64,000 nt of DNA from Halobaculum rubrum. Its GTDB lineage: Archaea; Halobacteriota; Halobacteria; Halobacteriales; Haloferacaceae. Numbering within the stretch: position 1 is the stretch's first letter; each line of letters opens with the position of its first letter. The position numbers and the translations under genes are program-made. Positions 15,639 to 29,123 of this stretch are shown in pieces. Under the pieces are notes generated by a model. It saw nothing but the letters and a program-made list of their open reading frames with translations. It did no database searches and had not been told where the DNA came from. The stretch spans positions 992,001-1,056,000 of the forward strand of contig NZ_CP082284.1 in the NCBI RefSeq assembly GCF_019880225.1. The letters are read 5' to 3'.

Positions 15639-15704
15639 ATGCAGAAGTCATCGGCGACCCCACGCGGACCGGACTCACCCGAGCAGTCGGAGGTCGGTGC
15701 GTGA
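15639..15704 (+). CDS. Possible 21-aa leader peptide upstream of cobT
   Basis: A 22-codon frame begins with ATG about 28 nt after a TATA-like box and ends with a TGA that overlaps the cobT GTG (GTGA). The product would be hydrophilic ([11 protein letters not shown] then [10 protein letters not shown]). The same start/stop overlap used between the true cob genes suggests it is translated and coupled to cobT. It may be only a leader that sets translation of the operon. No homologue is known to me. Confidence 0.4.
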
Positions 15705-16759
15705 GACTCGTCCTCGTCGCCGGGACGACCGAGACCGCGGCGGAGCCGGGGATCAGCGCAGCCGGGGCCGACCCGGAGCTGATGCGTCACACGCCCGGAG
15801 CCGACCTCGACGTGGTCGTTCACGGCGAGCCGACGCTCGCGCCGGTCGTGCCGGTGAGCCCGACGGGCTGTCCCACGCCCGCGGTTGTGACGCGCGCGGC
15901 CAGGGAGCTGCTCGGGTTCGACGCGATCGGCGTCGACGCCGGGATCGCCGGCCGGACGGGGGCACCGGCCATCGACGTCGGCGAGGGACCCGGCGCGGAC
16001 GTGCGGGAGCCGACGGCGGTCCCCGGCGCCGAGGGGACGTACGAGCGGGCGCGCGAACTCGGGGGCGCGCTCCCGGACGACCGGATCGTGATCGGGGAGA
16101 CGATTCCGGGCGGCACGACCACCGCGCTCGGCGTGTTGACCGCGCTGGGCGAGGAGCCGGCGGTGTCGTCGTCGCTTCCGGAGAACCCCCTCGACCTGAA
16201 GCGGCGGGTCGTCGCCGCGGGACTCGACGCCGGCGGGCTCGCGCCCGGCGACGCTGCCGGCGACCCGCTTCGGGCGGTTACGGCCGTCGGCGACCCCGTA
16301 CTCGCGGCGGTCGCCGGCCTGACGGCGGGCGCCGTGGAGTCGGACACGGAGGTGACGCTCGCCGGCGGGACGCAACTCGCCGCCGCCGCGGCGCTGGTCC
16401 GTCACGCGGGCGTCGACGCGCCGCTGACGCTCGCGACCACGTCGTTCGTCGCGGACGACGGCTCCGCCGGGATCGCCGGGCTCGCCGACTCACTGAGCGT
16501 CGACCTGACCGTCACGGACCCCGGGTTCGACGGGGTCGAGCATCCCGCGATGGCGGCGTACGTCGCCGGCGAGGCGAAGGAGGGTGTCGGCATGGGCGGG
16601 GCGCTCCACCTCGTCGAGGAGTCGGCCGCCTCGATGGCCGACCTCCGCGAGCGGATCGTCGACGTGTACGACCGCCTGCTCGCGGGAGCCGACGCCTCCG
16701 AGGGGGCCGTTGAGGGGTCGCCCGATGGGGCGGGGACGGCGCCGGAGGGGGAGCCGTGA
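15701..16759 (+). CDS. cobT: Archaeal nicotinate-nucleotide:base phosphoribosyltransferase (CobT-like)
   Basis: 352-aa protein of the archaeal CobT-like (TIGR00303) family, which activates the lower ligand of cobamides by making alpha-riboside phosphate from NaMN. Features are the [19 protein letters not shown] start, a Gly-rich [23 protein letters not shown]-type segment ([15 protein letters not shown] is the most telling), and [13 protein letters not shown] near the C-terminus. The GTG at 15701 overlaps a short upstream frame; the stop overlaps the cbiA start (GTGA). Which base is used here is unknown. Confidence 0.87.
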
Positions 16760-18114
16760 GGGGACTCGTCCTCGGCGGCACCGCCTCCGGCGTGGGCAAG
16801 ACCGTCGCGACGCTGTCGGCCATCCGGGCGCTCGACGCCGCCGGCTACGCTGTCCAGCCGGCGAAGGCGGGCCCGGACTTCATCGACCCGAGCCACCACG
16901 AGCGCATCGCCGGCACCCCCTCTCGGACGCTCGACGTCTGGATGCAGGGAGAGGAGGGCCTCCGCCGGAACTACTATCGCGGCGGCTCCGACGGGTGCGA
17001 CCCGTCTTCGCGGGGGACGTCGTCCCCCGCCCTCTGCGTGGTCGAGGGCGTCATGGGGCTGTACGACGGCGACGGGTCCAGCACGGCCCGGGTCGCCGAG
17101 GCGCTCGACCTTCCGGTTGTGCTCGTCGTCGACGCGAGCGCGGGGATGGAAAGCGTCGCCGCGACGTCGCTGGGCTTTCGCGAGTACGCCGCCCACGCCG
17201 GCCGCGACATCGACGTGGCGGGCGTGATCGCCCAGCGCGCCCACGGCGGGCGCCACGAGCGGGGGATCCGCGACGCGCTGCCCGAGGGGATCGCCTACCT
17301 CGGACGGATCCCCCCGAACCCGGATCTGGCGATCCCCGACCGGCACCTCGGGCTCCACATGGGCGAGGAGTCGCCCCTTCCCGGCGAGGCGCTCGATTCC
17401 GCGGCCGACCACCTCGACGCCGAGGCGCTGGCCGACCTCGCGCGCGAGCCGCCGCGACCGATCGGGCGCGACTCGCGACCGCCCGAGCGTGACTCCGGAT
17501 CCCCGACCGGGAAGCGCGTCGCGGTCGCCGACGACGCCGCCTTCGCGTTCCACTACCCGGCGGCGCTGGAGCGCCTCCGGGAGCGCGCCGAGGTGGAGAC
17601 GTTCGCGCCGACCCGCGGCGACGCGCTGCCCGAGTGCGACGCCGTCTACCTCCCCGGGGGCTACCCCGAACTCCACGCGCCCGCGCTCGCCGACAGCGAC
17701 GCGCTCGACGACCTCGCGGACAGAGCGGCGGAGGGCCTCCCCGTGCTCGGGGAGTGCGGCGGACTGATGGCGCTCGCGGAGACGCTGACGACCGCCGACG
17801 GCGACACACACGGGATGGCAGGCGTCCTCCCGGCGGACGTGCGGATGCACGACCGGTATCAAGCGCTCGACCACGTCGAGCTTCGCGCCCGCGACGACAC
17901 GCTCACCGCCCGAGCGGGCGAGACCCGCCGCGGCCACGAGTTCCACTACTCCTCGGCCGAGGTGGCCGACGACGCCCGCTTCGCCTTCGAGGTGGTCCGG
18001 GGCGACGGCATCGCCGACGGAATGGACGGCCTGACCGAGCACCGGACGCTCGGCACGTACGCGCACGTCCACCCCGAGAGCGGCGCGTTCGACTCGTTCC
18101 TGGAGGCGATCTGA
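16756..18114 (+). CDS. cbiA: Cobyrinic acid a,c-diamide synthase
   Basis: CbiA/CobB amidotransferase, 452 aa, ATP- and glutamine-dependent amidation of the a and c side chains of cobyrinate. The N-terminal synthetase domain has P-loop [14 protein letters not shown] and [13 protein letters not shown]; the C-terminal class I glutaminase has the nucleophile in [11 protein letters not shown], the YLPGGYPEL motif and the late FHYSSAE His. GTG 16756 overlaps the cobT stop. One base separates its stop from the HAD gene. A linker of about 40 residues between domains is Arg/Pro-rich. Confidence 0.95.
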
Positions 18115-18115
18115 G

Positions 18116-18814
18116 GTGGGGGCGGGCGGGTCGGGCGGCGCCGTCGAGGACGACGCGGGCGGTCACGGCGGCATCGCCGCCGTCTCGTTCGACCTGTTCG
18201 GCACCCTCGTCGACGCCGACACGCCCGACGATCCGGCCGCGGCCGTCGCCGCCGAGCTCCGCGATCGGGGCGTCGCCGTCCCCGACGACTGGGCCGACGC
18301 GTACGCCGAGCCACACTTGGAGTACACGGCGGGGGTCGAACGACCGCTCCATCACCACGTCGCGGCCGCGCTGGCGAGCCGCGGCCCCGAGCACGAGGCG
18401 CGTCCGTTCGTGGACGACGCCGCGGTGGCCGTCCGCGCGGCGTTCGATCGCCCGGTCGAGACGCGACCCGGCGCCGCCGAGGCGGTCGCGACGCTGTCCG
18501 AAACGTACCCCGTCGGCGTCCTGTCGAACTGCAGCGTTCCCGGGCTCGTCGGGCGGACGCTGGAGCGGTCGGTCGTGGACGCCGGGGACCTCGACGCCGT
18601 GACCGCCAGCGTCGAGTGCGGGTGGCGAAAGCCCGACGCGCGGGCGTTCGAGGCGGTCGCCGCCGACCTCGGCACACCAGTCGGGCGGCTGCTCCACGTC
18701 GGCGACGACCCGGAGACCGACGGCGGGGCGACCGACGCCGGCGCGCGGTTCGTCCCGGTCGGGGAGGTGTCGCTTCCGGAACTGCCGTCGGTCGTCGCGG
18801 AGCGATGGGGCTGA
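18116..18814 (+). CDS. HAD-superfamily hydrolase embedded in the cobalamin operon
   Basis: 232-aa HAD phosphatase-like enzyme. Motif I is FDLFGTLVDAD (nucleophile Asp and acid/base Asp spaced D-x-F-G-T rather than DxD, as in the haloacid dehalogenase/phosphatase subgroup), motif II is VLSNCS, motif III Lys in GWRKPDARAF, motif IV GDDPETD. It starts 2 bp after cbiA and overlaps cbiB by ten bases, so it is tightly bound to the pathway. A role as alpha-ribazole-phosphate or cobalamin-5'-phosphate phosphatase is an inference: no cobC or cobZ is seen in the island. Confidence 0.85.
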   Translation: MGAGGSGGAVEDDAGGHGGIAAVSFDLFGTLVDADTPDDPAAAVAAELRDRGVAVPDDWADAYAEPHLEYTAGVERPLHHHVAAALASRGPEHEARPFVDDAAVAVRAAFDRPVETRPGAAEAVATLSETYPVGVLSNCSVPGLVGRTLERSVVDAGDLDAVTASVECGWRKPDARAFEAVAADLGTPVGRLLHVGDDPETDGGATDAGARFVPVGEVSLPELPSVVAERWG

Positions 18815-20534: not shown

Positions 20535-21202
20535 TGTGCGGCGGCCGGGGCACCCGCCTCGGAGCGGTCGGCGCCGACACCGAGAAGCCGCTGGTCGAGA
20601 TCGGCGGCGTTCCGATGGTCGACCGTGTGCTCATGGCGCTCGCCGAAAGTCGGATCGAGGGCGTCCACGCCGTCGTCTCGCCGCACACGCCCGCGACCGC
20701 GACACACCTCATCGGACGTGATGACCTGACGGTCATCGAGGCCCCCGGCGACGGCTACGTTTCCGACCTCGGCTACGCGCTGGATCGGGTCGGCCGACCC
20801 GTGCTCACCGTCGCGAGCGACCTTCCGCTGCTCACGGCCGGGACGGTCGACCGCGCGGTCGACGCCGCCGGCGGCGACGATGCTTGCGCTTCCGGGTCCG
20901 GCGGCGCGGCCGCGTCGCTGACGGTGTACGTCCCCGTCGACCGCAAGCGGGAAGTCGGGGCGAGCGTCGACGAGCGGACGACGACTGTCGACGGCCGCAA
21001 GGTCGTGCCCACCGGGCTGAACGTCGTCGGCGACGAGGACGGAGAGCCTGTCGACGAAAGCGCGCTCGTCGTCGCCGACGAGCGCCTCGCGGTGAACGTG
21101 AACCGCCCGCGAGACCTGCGCGTCGCCGAGGCGCTCCTGCGTCGTCGACGCGAGAGAACCGAGACAGTGCCCGACCACCACGACCACGGAGACCACCCAT
21201 GA
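20519..21202 (+). CDS. cobY: GTP:adenosylcobinamide-phosphate guanylyltransferase
   Basis: Archaeal CobY nucleotidyltransferase, 227 aa, making AdoCbi-GDP; it replaces bacterial CobU. The nucleotide-binding start VMCGGRGTRLG is followed by EKPLVEIGGVPMVDRVL and the RPVLTVASDLPLLT metal site. The GTG at 20519 overlaps cobS by 16 bases and keeps the first beta strand (DALVM), whereas the ATG at 20534 would cut it off. The last residues form a small His/Asp tail (PDHHDHGDHP), unusual for the family. Confidence 0.9.
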   Translation: MDALVMCGGRGTRLGAVGADTEKPLVEIGGVPMVDRVLMALAESRIEGVHAVVSPHTPATATHLIGRDDLTVIEAPGDGYVSDLGYALDRVGRPVLTVASDLPLLTAGTVDRAVDAAGGDDACASGSGGAAASLTVYVPVDRKREVGASVDERTTTVDGRKVVPTGLNVVGDEDGEPVDESALVVADERLAVNVNRPRDLRVAEALLRRRRERTETVPDHHDHGDHP

Positions 21203-22212
21203 ACTTCGATACCGCACGCGACACGCCCCGAACACCCCACGGCAGCAGCGACGACCCCGACGTGCTCGACTTCAGCGCGAACACCAACCCGCACGTCCCC
21301 GACGGCGCCGAGGCGGCCTACCGCGACGCCTTCGAGGCGGCCCGGACGTACCCACGGGAGCCGCCCGCGGAGTATCGCCGGGCGGCCGCCGAGTACGTCG
21401 ACTGCGACCGGAAGGAGGTGATCCCCACACCCGGGGGGCTGGCGGCGATCCGGCTGACGATCGATCTCGCCGTGGAGCCGGGCGACTCGGTCGCGGTGCC
21501 GTCCCCGAGCTTCGGGGAGTACGCCCGCGAGGTGCGCCTGCAGGGCGGCGAGCAGTCGTTCGTTCCGCAAGACGAGATACTGGAGACCGACCCCGCCGAA
21601 CACGCGCTCGCGATCGTCTGTAACCCGAACAACCCGACCGGGAACGCCTACGGGGACGACGACCTGCGGGCGTTCGCCGCGCGGTGCCGGAAGGCGGGGA
21701 CGCCGCTGCTGGTCGACGAGGCGTTCCTCGGGTTCACCGACCGCCCGTCGCTGTCGGGGATGGACGGCGTGATCGTCGCTCGCTCGCTGACGAAGCTGTT
21801 CGGGCTGCCGGGCATCCGCGCGGGGTTCGCCGTCGCGACCGGCGACTGGGGGGAGATGCTGGCGAACGCCCGTCGCACCTGGAACCTCGGGGCGCCAGCG
21901 CTCGCGACCGGCGCCCACTGCATGCGACAGACGGCGTTCGTCGAGCGCGCTCGCGAGCGCGTCGCCGCCGAGCGCGAGCGCATGCGCGCGGCGCTTTCGG
22001 AGGCGGGATACGGCGTCCACCCCTCGGACGCGCCGTATCTCCTGCTCGATGTCGGCGACCGCGGGGTCGACGCGGTCGTCGAGGGCGCCGGCGAGGCCGG
22101 GATCGCGATCCGCGACGCGACGACGTTCCGCGGGCTCGACTCCCACGTCCGGGTGGCGGTCCGGACGCCCGCCGAGAACGACCGCCTGTTGGAGGTGCTC
22201 CGTGGGCTTTGA
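21199..22212 (+). CDS. cobD: L-threonine-phosphate decarboxylase-like aminotransferase-fold enzyme
   Basis: PLP enzyme of the CobD/HisC branch, 337 aa, expected to decarboxylate L-threonine-O-3-phosphate to (R)-1-amino-2-propanol phosphate for CbiB. It has LDFSANTNPHVP at the N-terminus (typical of CobD), AIVCNPNNPTGN, LLVDEAFLGF, the Schiff-base Lys in RSLTKLFGLPGIRAG and the late RVAVRTPAEND Arg. The ATG overlaps the cobY stop by four bases. HisC-type activity is possible by fold but unlikely in this position. Confidence 0.88.
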   Translation: MNFDTARDTPRTPHGSSDDPDVLDFSANTNPHVPDGAEAAYRDAFEAARTYPREPPAEYRRAAAEYVDCDRKEVIPTPGGLAAIRLTIDLAVEPGDSVAVPSPSFGEYAREVRLQGGEQSFVPQDEILETDPAEHALAIVCNPNNPTGNAYGDDDLRAFAARCRKAGTPLLVDEAFLGFTDRPSLSGMDGVIVARSLTKLFGLPGIRAGFAVATGDWGEMLANARRTWNLGAPALATGAHCMRQTAFVERARERVAAERERMRAALSEAGYGVHPSDAPYLLLDVGDRGVDAVVEGAGEAGIAIRDATTFRGLDSHVRVAVRTPAENDRLLEVLRGL

Positions 22213-22951
22213 GACCGCGGTCGCCGACGGCGTCCTCCGCCTGCGCCGCCCCGACACGCGCTGGCTCTCGACCGGCTGGGACGGCGGCTTCGCGGACGCC
22301 CCGGCGGCGTACAACGTCTCGGTCCCCGAGGGCTGGGAGCGGACCGACCTCGACGCGTACGCCACCGAAAGGCTCGCTGACGCCGGGTTCGCGGGAACGG
22401 GAGGCGACCCCGCGGGTCCGGCGCTCCTGACGGGCGTCGACATGCCCCACGCGCGGGTCGCGCGCTCCGGCTCCGTCGTCGCGGTCGCGACCGCGGGGGT
22501 GTCGAACCCCGCGGCGCTGCCGATGGCGGCGGACTCGGAGGACGCCGGCGCTCCCACGCCGGAGACGGACGCCGAACGCGGCAGCGACGGCGTCGGCCGT
22601 GGCACCGTGAACGTCCTCGTCGCGACGACCCGGCGGCTCGACGACGGCGCGCTCGCGAACCTCGTCGCGGTCGCCGCGGAGGCGAAGGCCGCGACCCTGC
22701 TCGCGACGACGGGCTTCCCGGGCACGACGACCGACGCGGTCGTCGCCGGCAGCGCGCGCGACGGCGAACCCGCGACGTTCTCGGGGAGCGCGACGCCGGT
22801 CGGGAGCGCCGCCCGGGTGTGCGTCCGCGACGCCGTTCGCGCGAGCCTCGAGTCACGGTACGCCGCCGGCGACGCGACCGTTCCGGACTCAGTCGCCGAC
22901 GCCGAGCACGGCGTCGTTACCGACCGCGAGGCGGAGGTGACGCGACCGTGA
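22202..22951 (+). CDS. cbiZ: Adenosylcobinamide amidohydrolase
   Basis: CbiZ, 249 aa, which cleaves adenosylcobinamide to adenosylcobyric acid so archaea can salvage incomplete corrinoids lacking CobU. Recognisable segments are LSTGWDGGF, TGVDMPHARVA, VVAVATAGVSNPA and GTVNVLVATTRRL, with a Gly/Thr-rich core TLLATTGFPGTTTDAVV. GTG 22202 overlaps the cobD stop by 11 bases. A 25-residue acidic insertion (around residues 105-130) interrupts the catalytic domain. Its stop ends the tightly packed set; 88 bp follow before cobA. Confidence 0.9.
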   Translation: MGFETAVADGVLRLRRPDTRWLSTGWDGGFADAPAAYNVSVPEGWERTDLDAYATERLADAGFAGTGGDPAGPALLTGVDMPHARVARSGSVVAVATAGVSNPAALPMAADSEDAGAPTPETDAERGSDGVGRGTVNVLVATTRRLDDGALANLVAVAAEAKAATLLATTGFPGTTTDAVVAGSARDGEPATFSGSATPVGSAARVCVRDAVRASLESRYAAGDATVPDSVADAEHGVVTDREAEVTRP

Positions 22952-23039: not shown

Positions 23040-23774
23040 ATGACAGACACGAACGCCGCCCCCGACGACGAGGAACGTACCGCCGACCGAGACGAAGAAC
23101 GCGACGGGGATCCTCGCGCCCGGACGCCCGGGAAAGGGGTTACTCCCGCCGCACGCGACATCGACGCGAGTGCGCCCGAGGAGTTCGGGCTGGTGCAGAC
23201 GTGGTGGGGCGACGGGAAGGGCAAGACGACGGCCGCGTTGGGGATGGCGTTCCGTGCCGCCGGCCACGGCTACCGGGTGCACCTCCTCCAGTTCATGAAA
23301 GGCGGCGCCGACAGCGTCGAGGACGTCCGCGGCGAGTACAACGCCATCGCCGCGATCCCGGGGATCACCTACGAGAACTCCGGCCACTACGGCTGGCACG
23401 CGATGGCCGACGGCACCGACGAGGACGACCACGCCGCCCGCGCTGCTGCGGGGTTCGAGCGTGCCCGCGAACTGGTCGACGGCTGGGCGGACGCCGACCT
23501 GACCGCGCCGCTTCCGCTCGACGGCGACCCGGAGGACGGCGCGCACATGCTCGTCCTCGACGAGGTGGTGTACGCCGTCAACCGCGGGTTGGTCGACCCG
23601 GACGACCTGCTCGAACTGGTCGAGTCCAAACCCGACGCCCTCGAACTCGTCCTCACGGGCGGCCACGAGGAGCCCGAGTACCTCGCCGACGCCTCGGACC
23701 TGATCACGAACGTTCGCAAGGTGAAACACCCCTTCGACGAGGGCCACCGCGCCCGCAAGGGCACCGAGTACTGA
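23040..23774 (+). CDS. cobA: Corrinoid adenosyltransferase (CobA/CobO type)
   Basis: Cob(I)yrinic acid a,c-diamide adenosyltransferase, 244 aa, putting the adenosyl group on Co(I) corrinoids. The P-loop [29 protein letters not shown], the [11 protein letters not shown] Walker B-like strand and LVLTGGHE are typical of CobO/CobA. About 50 acidic residues precede the domain. ATG 23040 follows an 88-bp gap in which I see no clear promoter; it overlaps cbiP by one or two bases (TGATG). Confidence 0.94.
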
Positions 23775-26587: not shown

Positions 26588-26656
26588 CTTAACCCCGTAT
26601 AGCGGTTTCGAATGTTCATATCAGAATAATGTTATCGGTTGGGTGGGGTGGTCGGC

Positions 26657-28090
26657 GTGAGCCCCGCCGACGATGTCCCGGCTCACCCGCTTCTTGAGGG
26701 GCTTCTTGGCCGCCCGCAGGACCGCGCAGGCGGCTGTCAAAGACCCGGGGGTCCGCACACCCCCTGGGATGCGCCCTGGCGCGACACCGCCCGCGAAGCC
26801 GATAAGACCCGGCTCTACCGCTATACCCTGGATTCGCCGGAAGGAACGCCGCTATCGAAGGTCGTTGCCGACGTCTTCGGTGACGGCCCCGGCGACTACT
26901 CCAACACTGACTACCAGTTGGCCCGTCGGTTTTTCGAACGGCACGACTGTTTCCTAATCGCCCGACGTGGCGGGAATCTTTGGGTCGAACCCACCCCAGA
27001 TGCCTTTCACTTGACCGCTGTAAGCAAACGGCAAGAAACGCAGACGGCGTCGGGATCGGGCTGTCAGACGGGACGCGACGGTGACGGCGGGGGTGGTTCG
27101 GGGTCAGCGAAGGACCGCGCCCAGGGTCTGCTGTCGTCGGTGTCGACTATTGGGAGCGACAGCATCCGCGCCGATCTGCTGGGTGAACTAGCGACGGAAC
27201 TGGAGTCAATTGACGGACGGTACAACATCTTAGAGCGGATTCGGGGGACCGGCTCTGAGTACCTGCTGTGTCCGTACAAGAATCGGTTCAACAGTCAGGA
27301 CAGGGTGGCCGACCTACGAACGTCCTGGCGTCGTGCATGGCGTCGTGCGGCCCGTCAGTACGACGACGCTGTTTGCCTGACCCTGACGACGGATCCGGGG
27401 ATGCACGACTCTGTGATGGATGCGACGGCGTCTCTGCTGGAGAACAAGAACCGGCTGGGTGAGTGGTTGGCGTACGATCCGAAGAGTGACGACCGGCCTG
27501 ATCGACTGGGATACCGTCCGACGAATCTCTATGCTCTGGAGTTTACTGACTCCGGGTTGCCACATCTGCACGTTGTATACTTTGGCGTTCGGTGGCTGAC
27601 GACACAGGCGGCGCTATCGCGGTATTGGGGCGACCGACAGGGGAAGATTGTTCACGTCCGCCGGCTGGCGAAGCGCGATGATCGGTTCGTGATGTCGTCG
27701 ACAGTGGACGTCGACAACCGTGACCCGCGGACGGCCAGGGAATACCTGGGGAAGTCCCTGAGGACGCTGGATACGCTGGCCGGGATGCAGCCTGCTGATG
27801 TATCTGACACCGTCGATCAACGTCGGAACAGGGACACGGATGACAGAGACGCCGACCTCTGGAAAATGGCGATCTACTGGGCGACAGGCAAACAGTTCTG
27901 GGGCGGGTCACCGTCATTAACAGCGGATGAGTGCGATGATGGAGAGGGAATTTCTAGAGGTGACCTCCCGCATATCCCCTGCTATCGGTTCGTCGGGTCT
28001 GCACTCTTCGACCAAATCCCTGGACACGTCCGTCAGAACGCTCAGCTCATCGGAGGTAATTCAATTAAGAGATTACCACCACCTCGTTGA
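26657..28090 (+). CDS. rep: HUH-type rolling-circle replication initiator (Rep)
   Basis: 477-aa plasmid/virus replication protein. Motif 1 is VCLTLTTDP (about residue 239-247), motif 2 (HUH) is GLPHLHVVYFG with His 303 and 305, and motif 3 is REYLGKSL with Tyr 363 and Lys 366, the order of rolling-circle initiators. An N-terminal domain with DYSNTDYQLARRFFERHDCF (about 80-99) looks like a winged-helix DNA-binding part, as in haloarchaeal plasmid Reps. GTG 26657 is chosen because AATAATGTTAT lies about 27 nt upstream; TTG 26639 is possible. Composition turns from GC-rich to AT-rich in its last ~15 codons, where the cargo begins. Confidence 0.85.
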   Translation: MSPADDVPAHPLLEGLLGRPQDRAGGCQRPGGPHTPWDAPWRDTAREADKTRLYRYTLDSPEGTPLSKVVADVFGDGPGDYSNTDYQLARRFFERHDCFLIARRGGNLWVEPTPDAFHLTAVSKRQETQTASGSGCQTGRDGDGGGGSGSAKDRAQGLLSSVSTIGSDSIRADLLGELATELESIDGRYNILERIRGTGSEYLLCPYKNRFNSQDRVADLRTSWRRAWRRAARQYDDAVCLTLTTDPGMHDSVMDATASLLENKNRLGEWLAYDPKSDDRPDRLGYRPTNLYALEFTDSGLPHLHVVYFGVRWLTTQAALSRYWGDRQGKIVHVRRLAKRDDRFVMSSTVDVDNRDPRTAREYLGKSLRTLDTLAGMQPADVSDTVDQRRNRDTDDRDADLWKMAIYWATGKQFWGGSPSLTADECDDGEGISRGDLPHIPCYRFVGSALFDQIPGHVRQNAQLIGGNSIKRLPPPR

Positions 28091-29123
28091 TCAAATCCAA
28101 CTCAGTCCTTACCAAATCCATCAGCTGTATAGAATTGTGACCGGTTGGGGGATGAGCCGGGAACAACACTATGTTACAGCGGATTATCTGTCATTTGTGC
28201 TCAGTCACTGGAGAGAGATTGATGCTACAAAGTATAGTTACAGAGTCATACAAGTCATCGGATTCGGTGGAAACGCAGCTACGTACCACGTAATAAGGAA
28301 TCAGTTACTTGATGATCAGGACGGACCGCCAACACATGGAGTCGGAGCAAACTATGCGATGAAGTTAGCGCATGAAGACCTATCCGATGAAAGGTTGGAC
28401 CGGTTTGAGACAGAAAAAGAGTTTTTGAAAGATGTAGATCATCCACTAATTCTACCCTACTATGAGGAGGGTGAATTCTATGATTCTCCCTTCATGATCA
28501 TTGAATATCTGCCGAATACGATGGAAGAGATCATTTTGTCTGATAATGCGACTATCTCTGAGAAATTGAATTATGCCACACAGCTGATCTCATCTCTTGT
28601 TTATATCCATAATCTGGACGACCCTGTCGTTCATCGTGACATCAAACCTTCGAACATATTCGTGAGGCAAAACACCGCTTTCCTAGGAGACTTTGGATTA
28701 ATCAAGCGACAAAGCACAGACCCTGATGAAGATAACTTCGAAATGAATAAAGAGAGTGAGGAACGGGCAGTGCCATCTAAACATCCCACCCCGGACTTAA
28801 TAGAATATGAACAAGGAGGTGAGTTGACAACTGCTTCCGATATATACCAGATGGGGATTGTGCTAACTAAGTTATTTACTGGGAGCAATCAGAACCCTGT
28901 ACAAAACGTACACAATAGAGAAGAGGGAGACCCGGTGGTTACTGCGGAAATAGACAACGTGCCCGGGACAGTAGTGAGTGATGACATTCAGCGGTTACTA
29001 ACGGATATGACTATAGAGGATGCTGCTGACCGACCAAATGCTGAGGAGTTACTCTCCGACTGGAAGGAACTCCTCAGAGAAGCAACTTTGGAGGCACGAC
29101 GTCTGGACGGAAGAGTCCTGTAG
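27927..29123 (+). CDS. Eukaryotic-type serine/threonine protein kinase on the integrated element
   Basis: Hanks-type kinase, up to 398 aa. From ATG 27927: Gly-rich loop IGFGGNAATY at 111-120, ATP-binding Lys in YAMKLA (146), catalytic loop VVHRDIKPSN (Asp 238), DFG at 255-257, and TTASDIYQMGIVL of the F helix, so all catalytic residues are present. A ~100-residue helical region precedes the kinase domain. The usual APE motif is not clear and the activation segment is long and acidic. No membrane helix or PASTA domain is seen. The start is uncertain: 27927 overlaps rep by 164 bp, but low-GC coding pattern extends upstream of the next candidates, GTG 28137 and ATG 28152. It converges with the HEPN gene. 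Confidence 0.85.
   Translation: MSAMMEREFLEVTSRISPAIGSSGLHSSTKSLDTSVRTLSSSEVIQLRDYHHLVDQIQLSPYQIHQLYRIVTGWGMSREQHYVTADYLSFVLSHWREIDATKYSYRVIQVIGFGGNAATYHVIRNQLLDDQDGPPTHGVGANYAMKLAHEDLSDERLDRFETEKEFLKDVDHPLILPYYEEGEFYDSPFMIIEYLPNTMEEIILSDNATISEKLNYATQLISSLVYIHNLDDPVVHRDIKPSNIFVRQNTAFLGDFGLIKRQSTDPDEDNFEMNKESEERAVPSKHPTPDLIEYEQGGELTTASDIYQMGIVLTKLFTGSNQNPVQNVHNREEGDPVVTAEIDNVPGTVVSDDIQRLLTDMTIEDAADRPNAEELLSDWKELLREATLEARRLDGRVL

What the first reader, a model, noticed from the sequence alone, without database searches (positions are those of the whole stretch)
18116..18814. HAD phosphatase locked into the cobalamin operon: candidate for the missing phosphatase step
The gene starts 2 bp after cbiA and overlaps cbiB by ten bases. 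The cluster has CobT, CobS and CobY but no CobC or CobZ phosphatase. Removing phosphate from alpha-ribazole phosphate or cobalamin phosphate needs such an enzyme, so this HAD protein may be a non-orthologous replacement.
Basis: inference. Interest (0 to 1): 0.55.

Follow-up and report, generated by a model that had tools for sequence, protein, structure and literature searches.

The report
HAD protein in haloarchaeal B12 operon
A gene in the vitamin B12 operon of a salt-loving archaeon probably makes the enzyme that removes the last phosphate in B12 assembly, an idea already in print, but its active site lacks one residue that such phosphatases normally need.

Summary
A 232-aa HAD gene sits between cbiA (1 nt gap) and cbiB (10-nt overlap) in a haloarchaeal (Halobaculum-like) cobamide operon. 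The genome has no CobZ/PgpA and no CobC over the curated cut-off.

New evidence here, for: in 293 Halobacteriales genomes HAD and cobS co-occur (225 both, 38 neither, 30 discordant). HAD lies 0.9-1.3 kb upstream of cobS in 86 of 97 genomes compared. Catalytic or invariant residues are intact in 221 of 225 cobS+ genomes (2 more are cut by contig ends) but damaged in 7 of 13 cobS- genomes.

Against: motif I is DxF, not DxD, in 240 of 240 copies, so the usual general acid/base is missing. Also 19 of 242 cobS+ genomes have no HAD or only a dead one.

So: very likely a cobamide-pathway gene; phosphatase is the best single guess (about 0.55), by an atypical mechanism. In passing: Halobaculum keeps a catalytically dead second copy that looks under purifying selection.

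The parts
18116..18814 (+). HAD-IA hydrolase family protein, 232 aa; haloarchaeal cobamide-operon family (motif I FDLFGTL: D26, F28; motif II S137; motif III R171-K172; motif IV D197..D202)
16756..18114 (+). cbiA/cobB cobyrinate a,c-diamide synthase, upstream neighbour (1-nt gap)
   Evidence: NCBIfam NF010471 769.8 bits
18805..19740 (+). cbiB adenosylcobinamide-phosphate synthase, downstream neighbour (10-nt overlap)
   Evidence: PF03186 231 bits
19737..20534 (+). cobS adenosylcobinamide-GDP ribazoletransferase (its product, cobalamin 5'-phosphate, needs a phosphatase)
   Evidence: PF02654, TIGR00317
20531..21202 (+). cobY-like adenosylcobinamide-phosphate guanylyltransferase
   Evidence: NF045495 93 bits, below its cut-off; position between cobS and cobD
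15701..16759 (+). archaeal cobT (nicotinate mononucleotide-dependent phosphoribosyltransferase)
   Evidence: TIGR00303 246.4 bits over its cut-off of 240
21199..22212 (+). cobD-like aminotransferase/decarboxylase (label by reading; no family search run)
22049..22951 (+). cbiZ amidohydrolase, without the fused CobZ domain of CbiS (frame as listed; true start probably further in)
   Evidence: PF01955; NF038002 partial
23040..23774 (+). cobA cob(I)yrinic acid a,c-diamide adenosyltransferase
   Evidence: PF02572
23774..25390 (+). cbiP cobyric acid synthase (label by reading; homologues found next to cobA in related loci)

Best explanation
The HAD gene encodes a haloarchaea-specific HAD-IA hydrolase that works in the last part of cobamide assembly, most likely as the non-orthologous replacement of CobC/CobZ. 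It would remove the 5'-phosphate of cobalamin 5'-phosphate (the CobS product) and/or of alpha-ribazole phosphate. Shown here: the gene, its fold, its operon, its co-occurrence with cobS and its decay without cobS. Inferred: the chemistry. Asp26 would attack the phosphate with Mg2+ held by Asp26 and Asp197, and with Ser137 and Lys172 as stabilisers. Because Phe28 stands where phosphatases carry the second Asp, the leaving group must be protonated and the aspartyl phosphate hydrolysed by another group (conserved His81 or Arg171 are candidates) or slowly.
For: Locked in the operon between cbiA and cbiB. In 37 of 50 haloarchaeal loci from named genome records cbiB follows directly. Same-strand distance to cobS is 914-1312 nt in 86 of 97 genomes. 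Over 293 Halobacteriales genomes: both 225, HAD only 13, CobS only 17, neither 38, phi 0.655; the histidine-phosphatase control gives phi 0.07 with CobS. Core residues (D26, S137, R171, K172, D197) are intact in at least one copy in 221 of 225 cobS+ genomes, but damaged in 7 of 13 cobS- genomes; counting G086 and G259, cut by contig ends, as undamaged, damaged is 2 of 225 against 7 of 13, Fisher p 7.5e-9. All 8 nucleophile-dead copies lie outside the cobS operon. CobZ: 2 of 293 genomes at E <= 0.001, 1 over cut-off. CobC over cut-off: 0 of 293. Published prediction of the same step for the syntenic gene.
Against: Motif I is DxF in 240 of 240 covered copies, and in all 50 haloarchaeal loci plus the window, while 3 bacterial relatives have DxD. 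17 of 242 cobS+ genomes have no HAD at E <= 1e-20; 11 of the 17 were read and have most or all of the other cob genes. 2 more (G104, G251) have only a dead one. 6 of 13 cobS- genomes keep an intact HAD (one of them, G160, is 87% complete). CbiB follows CobS: absent in all 13 HAD+ cobS- genomes and present in all 17 cobS+ HAD- genomes, so co-occurrence cannot separate the CobS step from others in the branch. No activity data. The genomes are related, so p-values overstate independence.
Confidence: 0.55

Rival explanations
1. The HAD protein works in nucleotide-loop assembly but is not a phosphomonoesterase: a D+2-less HAD hydrolase (as in dehalogenase or phosphonatase chemistry), or a scaffold/regulatory partner of the CbiB/CobS membrane steps. 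Another, unlinked phosphatase does the CobC step.
For: Invariant Phe at D+2. The closest solved sequence, 1x42 (PH0459), also lacks D+2 (FDFVGT) and is named hypothetical. The best fold matches mix haloacid dehalogenases, an azetidine-carboxylate hydrolase and epoxysuccinate hydrolases with phosphatases. 19 of 242 cobS+ genomes do without an active HAD. A nucleophile-dead paralogue is preserved in Halobaculum, so the fold can be kept without chemistry.
Against: Motif IV GDDPxTD (phosphatase style, Mg-binding) and the nucleophile, Ser and Lys are conserved in every cobS-linked copy that is not cut by a contig end. No intermediate of this branch calls for non-phosphate hydrolysis by such an enzyme (pathway knowledge).
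Confidence: 0.25
2. The CobC step is done by the histidine phosphatase elsewhere in the genome (C1:1458939-1459670), a sub-threshold CobC relative, and the HAD is accessory.
For: Its best NCBIfam match is TIGR03162 CobC, 102 bits. Relatives occur in 7 of the 17 cobS+ HAD- genomes.
Against: Below the 162.9-bit cut-off; 0 of 293 genomes exceed it. Present in only 102 of 293 genomes with no association with cobS (phi 0.07). Not in the operon. 10 of the 17 cobS+ HAD- genomes lack it too.
Confidence: 0.1
3. The HAD is a general house-cleaning phosphatase that merely travels with the operon.
For: In 9 Halorubrum and 2 Halomarina loci, and in 10 of 97 compared genomes, all of one genus of the family (g2), it lies away from the cob genes. 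It stays intact in 6 of 13 cobS- genomes.
Against: Loss and damage follow the loss of cobS. It was found in no genome outside the order in the phylum sample: all 38 hits among 246 genomes are haloarchaeal.
Confidence: 0.1

Closest known systems
HVO_0586 / VNG_1577C (haloarchaeal gene before cbiB; predicted EC 3.1.3.73)
   Same: Same position before cbiB-cobS-cobY, same order of genes, same proposed step (PMC8305020 Table 3). Orthology is inferred from synteny; that record was not fetched.
   Different: This copy has a longer N-terminus and belongs to a separate Halobaculum clade. The DxF motif and the dead copies were not mentioned in the passages I read.
CobC (Salmonella), histidine phosphatase family
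   Same: Proposed reaction
   Different: Different fold and family; no haloarchaeal protein passes its cut-off
CobZ (Methanosarcina mazei), PgpA-like (family recalled)
   Same: Proposed reaction, archaeal non-orthologous replacement
   Different: Different family; PF04608 in 2 of 293 haloarchaeal genomes
HAD-IA (C1-cap) phosphatases and L-2-haloacid dehalogenases
   Same: Fold (Z about 18-20); nucleophile Asp, Ser, Lys; acidic motif IV as in phosphatases
   Different: Motif I DxF instead of DxD (phosphatases)

Membership tests
HAD superfamily, subfamily IA | Rossmannoid HAD fold and Pfam/NCBIfam match | tested here: met
   PF00702 40.9 bits, TIGR01549 over cut-off; model matches HAD-IA chains with Z about 18-20
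HAD superfamily, subfamily IA | Nucleophile Asp (motif I), Ser/Thr (II), Lys (III), acidic motif IV | tested here: met
   D26, S137, K172, D197, D202 invariant in 51 of 51 aligned
HAD phosphatases | Second Asp in motif I (DxD), general acid/base (role: PMC8069645) | tested here: not met
   Phe in 240 of 240 covered copies
HAD phosphatases | Hydrolysis of a phosphomonoester | not testable with these tools
   needs an assay
CobC (EC 3.1.3.73, histidine phosphatase) | TIGR03162 over its cut-off | tested here: not met
   not among the NCBIfam families matched by the HAD protein; 0 of 293 genomes over cut-off
CobZ (PgpA-like) | PF04608 match | tested here: not met
   not matched by the HAD protein; 0 in own genome
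HVO_0586/VNG_1577C orthologue group | Gene directly before cbiB-cobS-cobY(-cobT-cobD) | tested here: met
   Order seen in loci such as L007, L043, L047 equals the locus-tag order in Table 3; sequence of HVO_0586 itself not compared
L-2-haloacid dehalogenase (TIGR01428) | Score over the curated cut-off | tested here: not met
   31.1 bits against 125.4

The most novel reading that the evidence does not exclude
A lineage-specific HAD family that does the last step of haloarchaeal cobamide synthesis with Phe in place of the general acid/base Asp, so a phosphatase that uses another acid (or substrate-assisted) route. In Halobaculum its displaced native copy was turned into a conserved, catalytically dead protein after a foreign cob operon brought in a second copy.
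Probability: 0.25. Interest if true: 0.65.

Novelty: new member of a known kind. Interest (0 to 1): 0.4.

Why it matters
The CobC step is an open gap in haloarchaeal vitamin B12 synthesis. The genomic data make one gene family the clear test object and show that a real result would also be mechanistic: either a HAD phosphatase without its general acid/base Asp, or a cobamide protein with another function. The natural variants (dead copies, Arg171 variants, cobS+ genomes without HAD) are ready-made controls.

Tried and rejected
CobZ/PgpA elsewhere in the genome: none; 2 of 293 in the order. CobC elsewhere: a histidine phosphatase below cut-off, not associated with cobS. Hidden CobZ domain in CbiZ (CbiS type): not there. 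A replacement gene in the operon of the cobS+ HAD- genomes: none seen. cbiA and cbiB lie next to each other in L120, L121 and L123, and in g53 the gap before cbiB holds a btuF-like ORF in L129 (name by reading). 6 of those 17 genomes (G003, G012, G039, G069, G127, G185) were not read around cobS. What does the step in the 10 genomes without HAD or histidine-phosphatase relative (plus dead-only G104 and G251) is unexplained.

Deciding phosphatase against dehalogenase by fold: not possible, both appear among the best matches. The Foldseek and VIA lists are fold neighbours only.

Limits: HAD presence was called at E <= 1e-20. The linkage count uses the 97 genomes for which both rows were listed and copied into, not all 225; listings were ordered by score, so the sample is not random. 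Handles and coordinates were copied by hand into scripts. dN/dS is by a self-written Nei-Gojobori script; support comes from the codon-position counts. Tree support for deep nodes is low.

Literature: PMC8305020 read as passages; its supplement was not read; the 2003 paper is not held, so its prediction is known only through Table 3. PMC3541065, PMC8069645 and PMC12632274 read as passages. That no test of this gene is in print rests in an open-access library only.

Full report
What is there. The window lies in a 3.06-Mb haloarchaeal genome. Its HAD protein is 83% and 86% identical to Halobaculum gomorrense and H. saliterrae copies. The gene spans 18116-18814 on the + strand, with a GTG start, one base after the cbiA stop, and overlaps cbiB by 10 bases. 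The operon reads cobT-cbiA-HAD-cbiB-cobS-cobY-cobD-cbiZ-cobA-cbiP, after btu-type transport genes (cobD, cbiP and btu are labels by reading). Third-position GC is 0.92, and close relatives exist in 50 haloarchaeal loci, so the ORF is a gene.

The missing phosphatase. CobZ (PF04608) is absent from the genome and present in 2 of 293 genomes of the order. CobC (TIGR03162) reaches its cut-off in 0 of 293. The genome has one histidine phosphatase whose best family is CobC at 102 bits. Its relatives occur in 102 of 293 genomes and are not associated with cobS (phi 0.07). The CbiZ lacks the CobZ part of CbiS.

Prior claim. PMC8305020, Table 3 (passages read), lists HVO_0586 as 'prediction ... EC 3.1.3.73; prediction for HSL01294 (VNG_1577C)', citing a 2003 comparative genomics paper that I could not read. 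It also says CobC has no homologue in haloarchaea. HVO_0586 is followed by cbiB, cobS, cobY, cobT and cobD1, the order seen in related loci, so it is by inference the same gene. Searches for its locus tags found only this paper.

Distribution. With a profile of 51 sequences, 238 of 293 Halobacteriales genomes have the HAD (E <= 1e-20) and 242 have CobS: both 225, HAD only 13, CobS only 17, neither 38. In a phylum sample of 246 genomes all 38 hits were haloarchaeal. HAD lies 914-1312 nt upstream of cobS on the same strand in 86 of the 97 genomes compared; 10 of the 11 exceptions are one genus (g2) and the other is G104. Among loci from named genome records, 37 of 50 have cbiB directly downstream; 9 Halorubrum, 2 Halomarina, L003 and L033 do not (L033 ends too soon to tell).

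Integrity. I read residues from all 238 HAD+ genomes (243 copies). At least one copy with D26, S137, R171, K172 and D197 is present in 221 of 225 cobS+ genomes; two of the other four are cut by contig ends (G259, G086) and two are dead (G104, G251). Among the 13 cobS- genomes 6 are intact and 7 damaged: nucleophile lost in G234 and G082; Arg171 changed in G097, G124 and G245; one split pseudogene (G132); one truncated copy (G262). Fisher p is 7.5e-9 with the two contig-cut genomes counted as undamaged, without correction for kinship. All 8 nucleophile-dead copies are outside the cobS operon, beside a gene I read as an Xaa-Pro peptidase, and in 6 of 8 with a DUF2070-like gene seen on the other side (names recalled). 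This looks like the remnant of an older arrangement in which the cob genes stood between those two genes: L043 still has the peptidase before HAD-cbiB-cobS, and G245 has HAD-cobD-DUF2070. All 13 cobS- genomes also lack CbiB, so this coupling is to the whole loop-assembly branch, not to CobS alone.

The active-site problem. In HAD phosphatases the second Asp of motif I is the general acid/base (PMC8069645). Here it is Phe in 240 of 240 copies in which the position is covered, including the deep-branching G011 copy that still lies before cbiB and cobS. Three bacterial relatives have Asp there. The nearest solved sequence, 1x42, has Val. Motif IV is phosphatase-like (GDDPxTD). The AlphaFold2 model is confident (pLDDT 91.9, pTM 0.86) but its fold neighbours are both phosphatases and C-X hydrolases. 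Under a phosphatase reading another group must do the acid/base work; conserved His81 (Tyr in 4 genomes) and Arg171 are the candidates. This is inference.

Exceptions against the simple story. 17 cobS+ genomes lack the HAD; 11 of them were fetched around cobS and carry most or all of the other cob genes, some with cbiA directly before cbiB. Two more have only dead copies. Seven of the 17 have the histidine phosphatase, ten do not. So some haloarchaea solve the step otherwise, or the step does not need a dedicated enzyme.

A dead paralogue. The window's own genome carries a second copy (C1:901652-902257, 59% identical) without the nucleophile, motif II Ser and motif IV Asp. All five Halobaculum genomes in the sample have this copy in the same place (G234 has only this one and no cobS); they form one clade (support 0.974), apart from the operon copies (0.997). 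Differences among them fall at codon positions 285:269:782, against 173:187:342 for the active copies; pairwise dN/dS among these five is 0.18-0.37, against 0.35-0.46 for active copies. So it appears to be kept by selection as a non-catalytic protein. A non-catalytic HAD protein has an experimental precedent (PcrP, PMC12632274, passages).

Verdict. Observation confirmed; interpretation partly supported and already published as a prediction. Cobamide-branch function about 0.9; CobC-type phosphatase about 0.55.

Noticed in passing
own genome G000 C1:901652-902257 (locus L056:1501-2109 with stop); L100-L103: Catalytically dead second copy of the HAD in all five sampled Halobaculum genomes, same locus, apparently under purifying selection (codon-position differences 285:269:782; dN/dS 0.18-0.37).
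   Followed up: partly
L149 (G104), L315 (G251), L106 (G082): Further nucleophile-dead copies at the peptidase-linked locus in other genera, by the tree independent losses; G104 and G251 have cobS but no active HAD.
   Followed up: partly
G097, G124, G245 (loci L098, L096, L099): Arg171, invariant in every covered HAD copy of cobS+ genomes except the degraded G251 copy, is Ala, Glu or Cys in three cobS- genomes: a residue possibly tied to the cobamide substrate.
   Followed up: partly
L120-L130: cob operons without the HAD in cobS+ genomes; the enzyme that does the dephosphorylation there is unknown.
   Followed up: partly
own genome C1:1458939-1459670 (L054:1447-2181, -): Histidine phosphatase closest to CobC (102 bits, below cut-off) beside a LarE-like gene on the opposite strand (name recalled).
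   Followed up: partly
window 26639-29123: After the tRNA-methyltransferase-like gene, ORFs that read like a rolling-circle Rep protein (26639-28090) and a protein kinase (27927-29123): possible integrated element.
   Followed up: no
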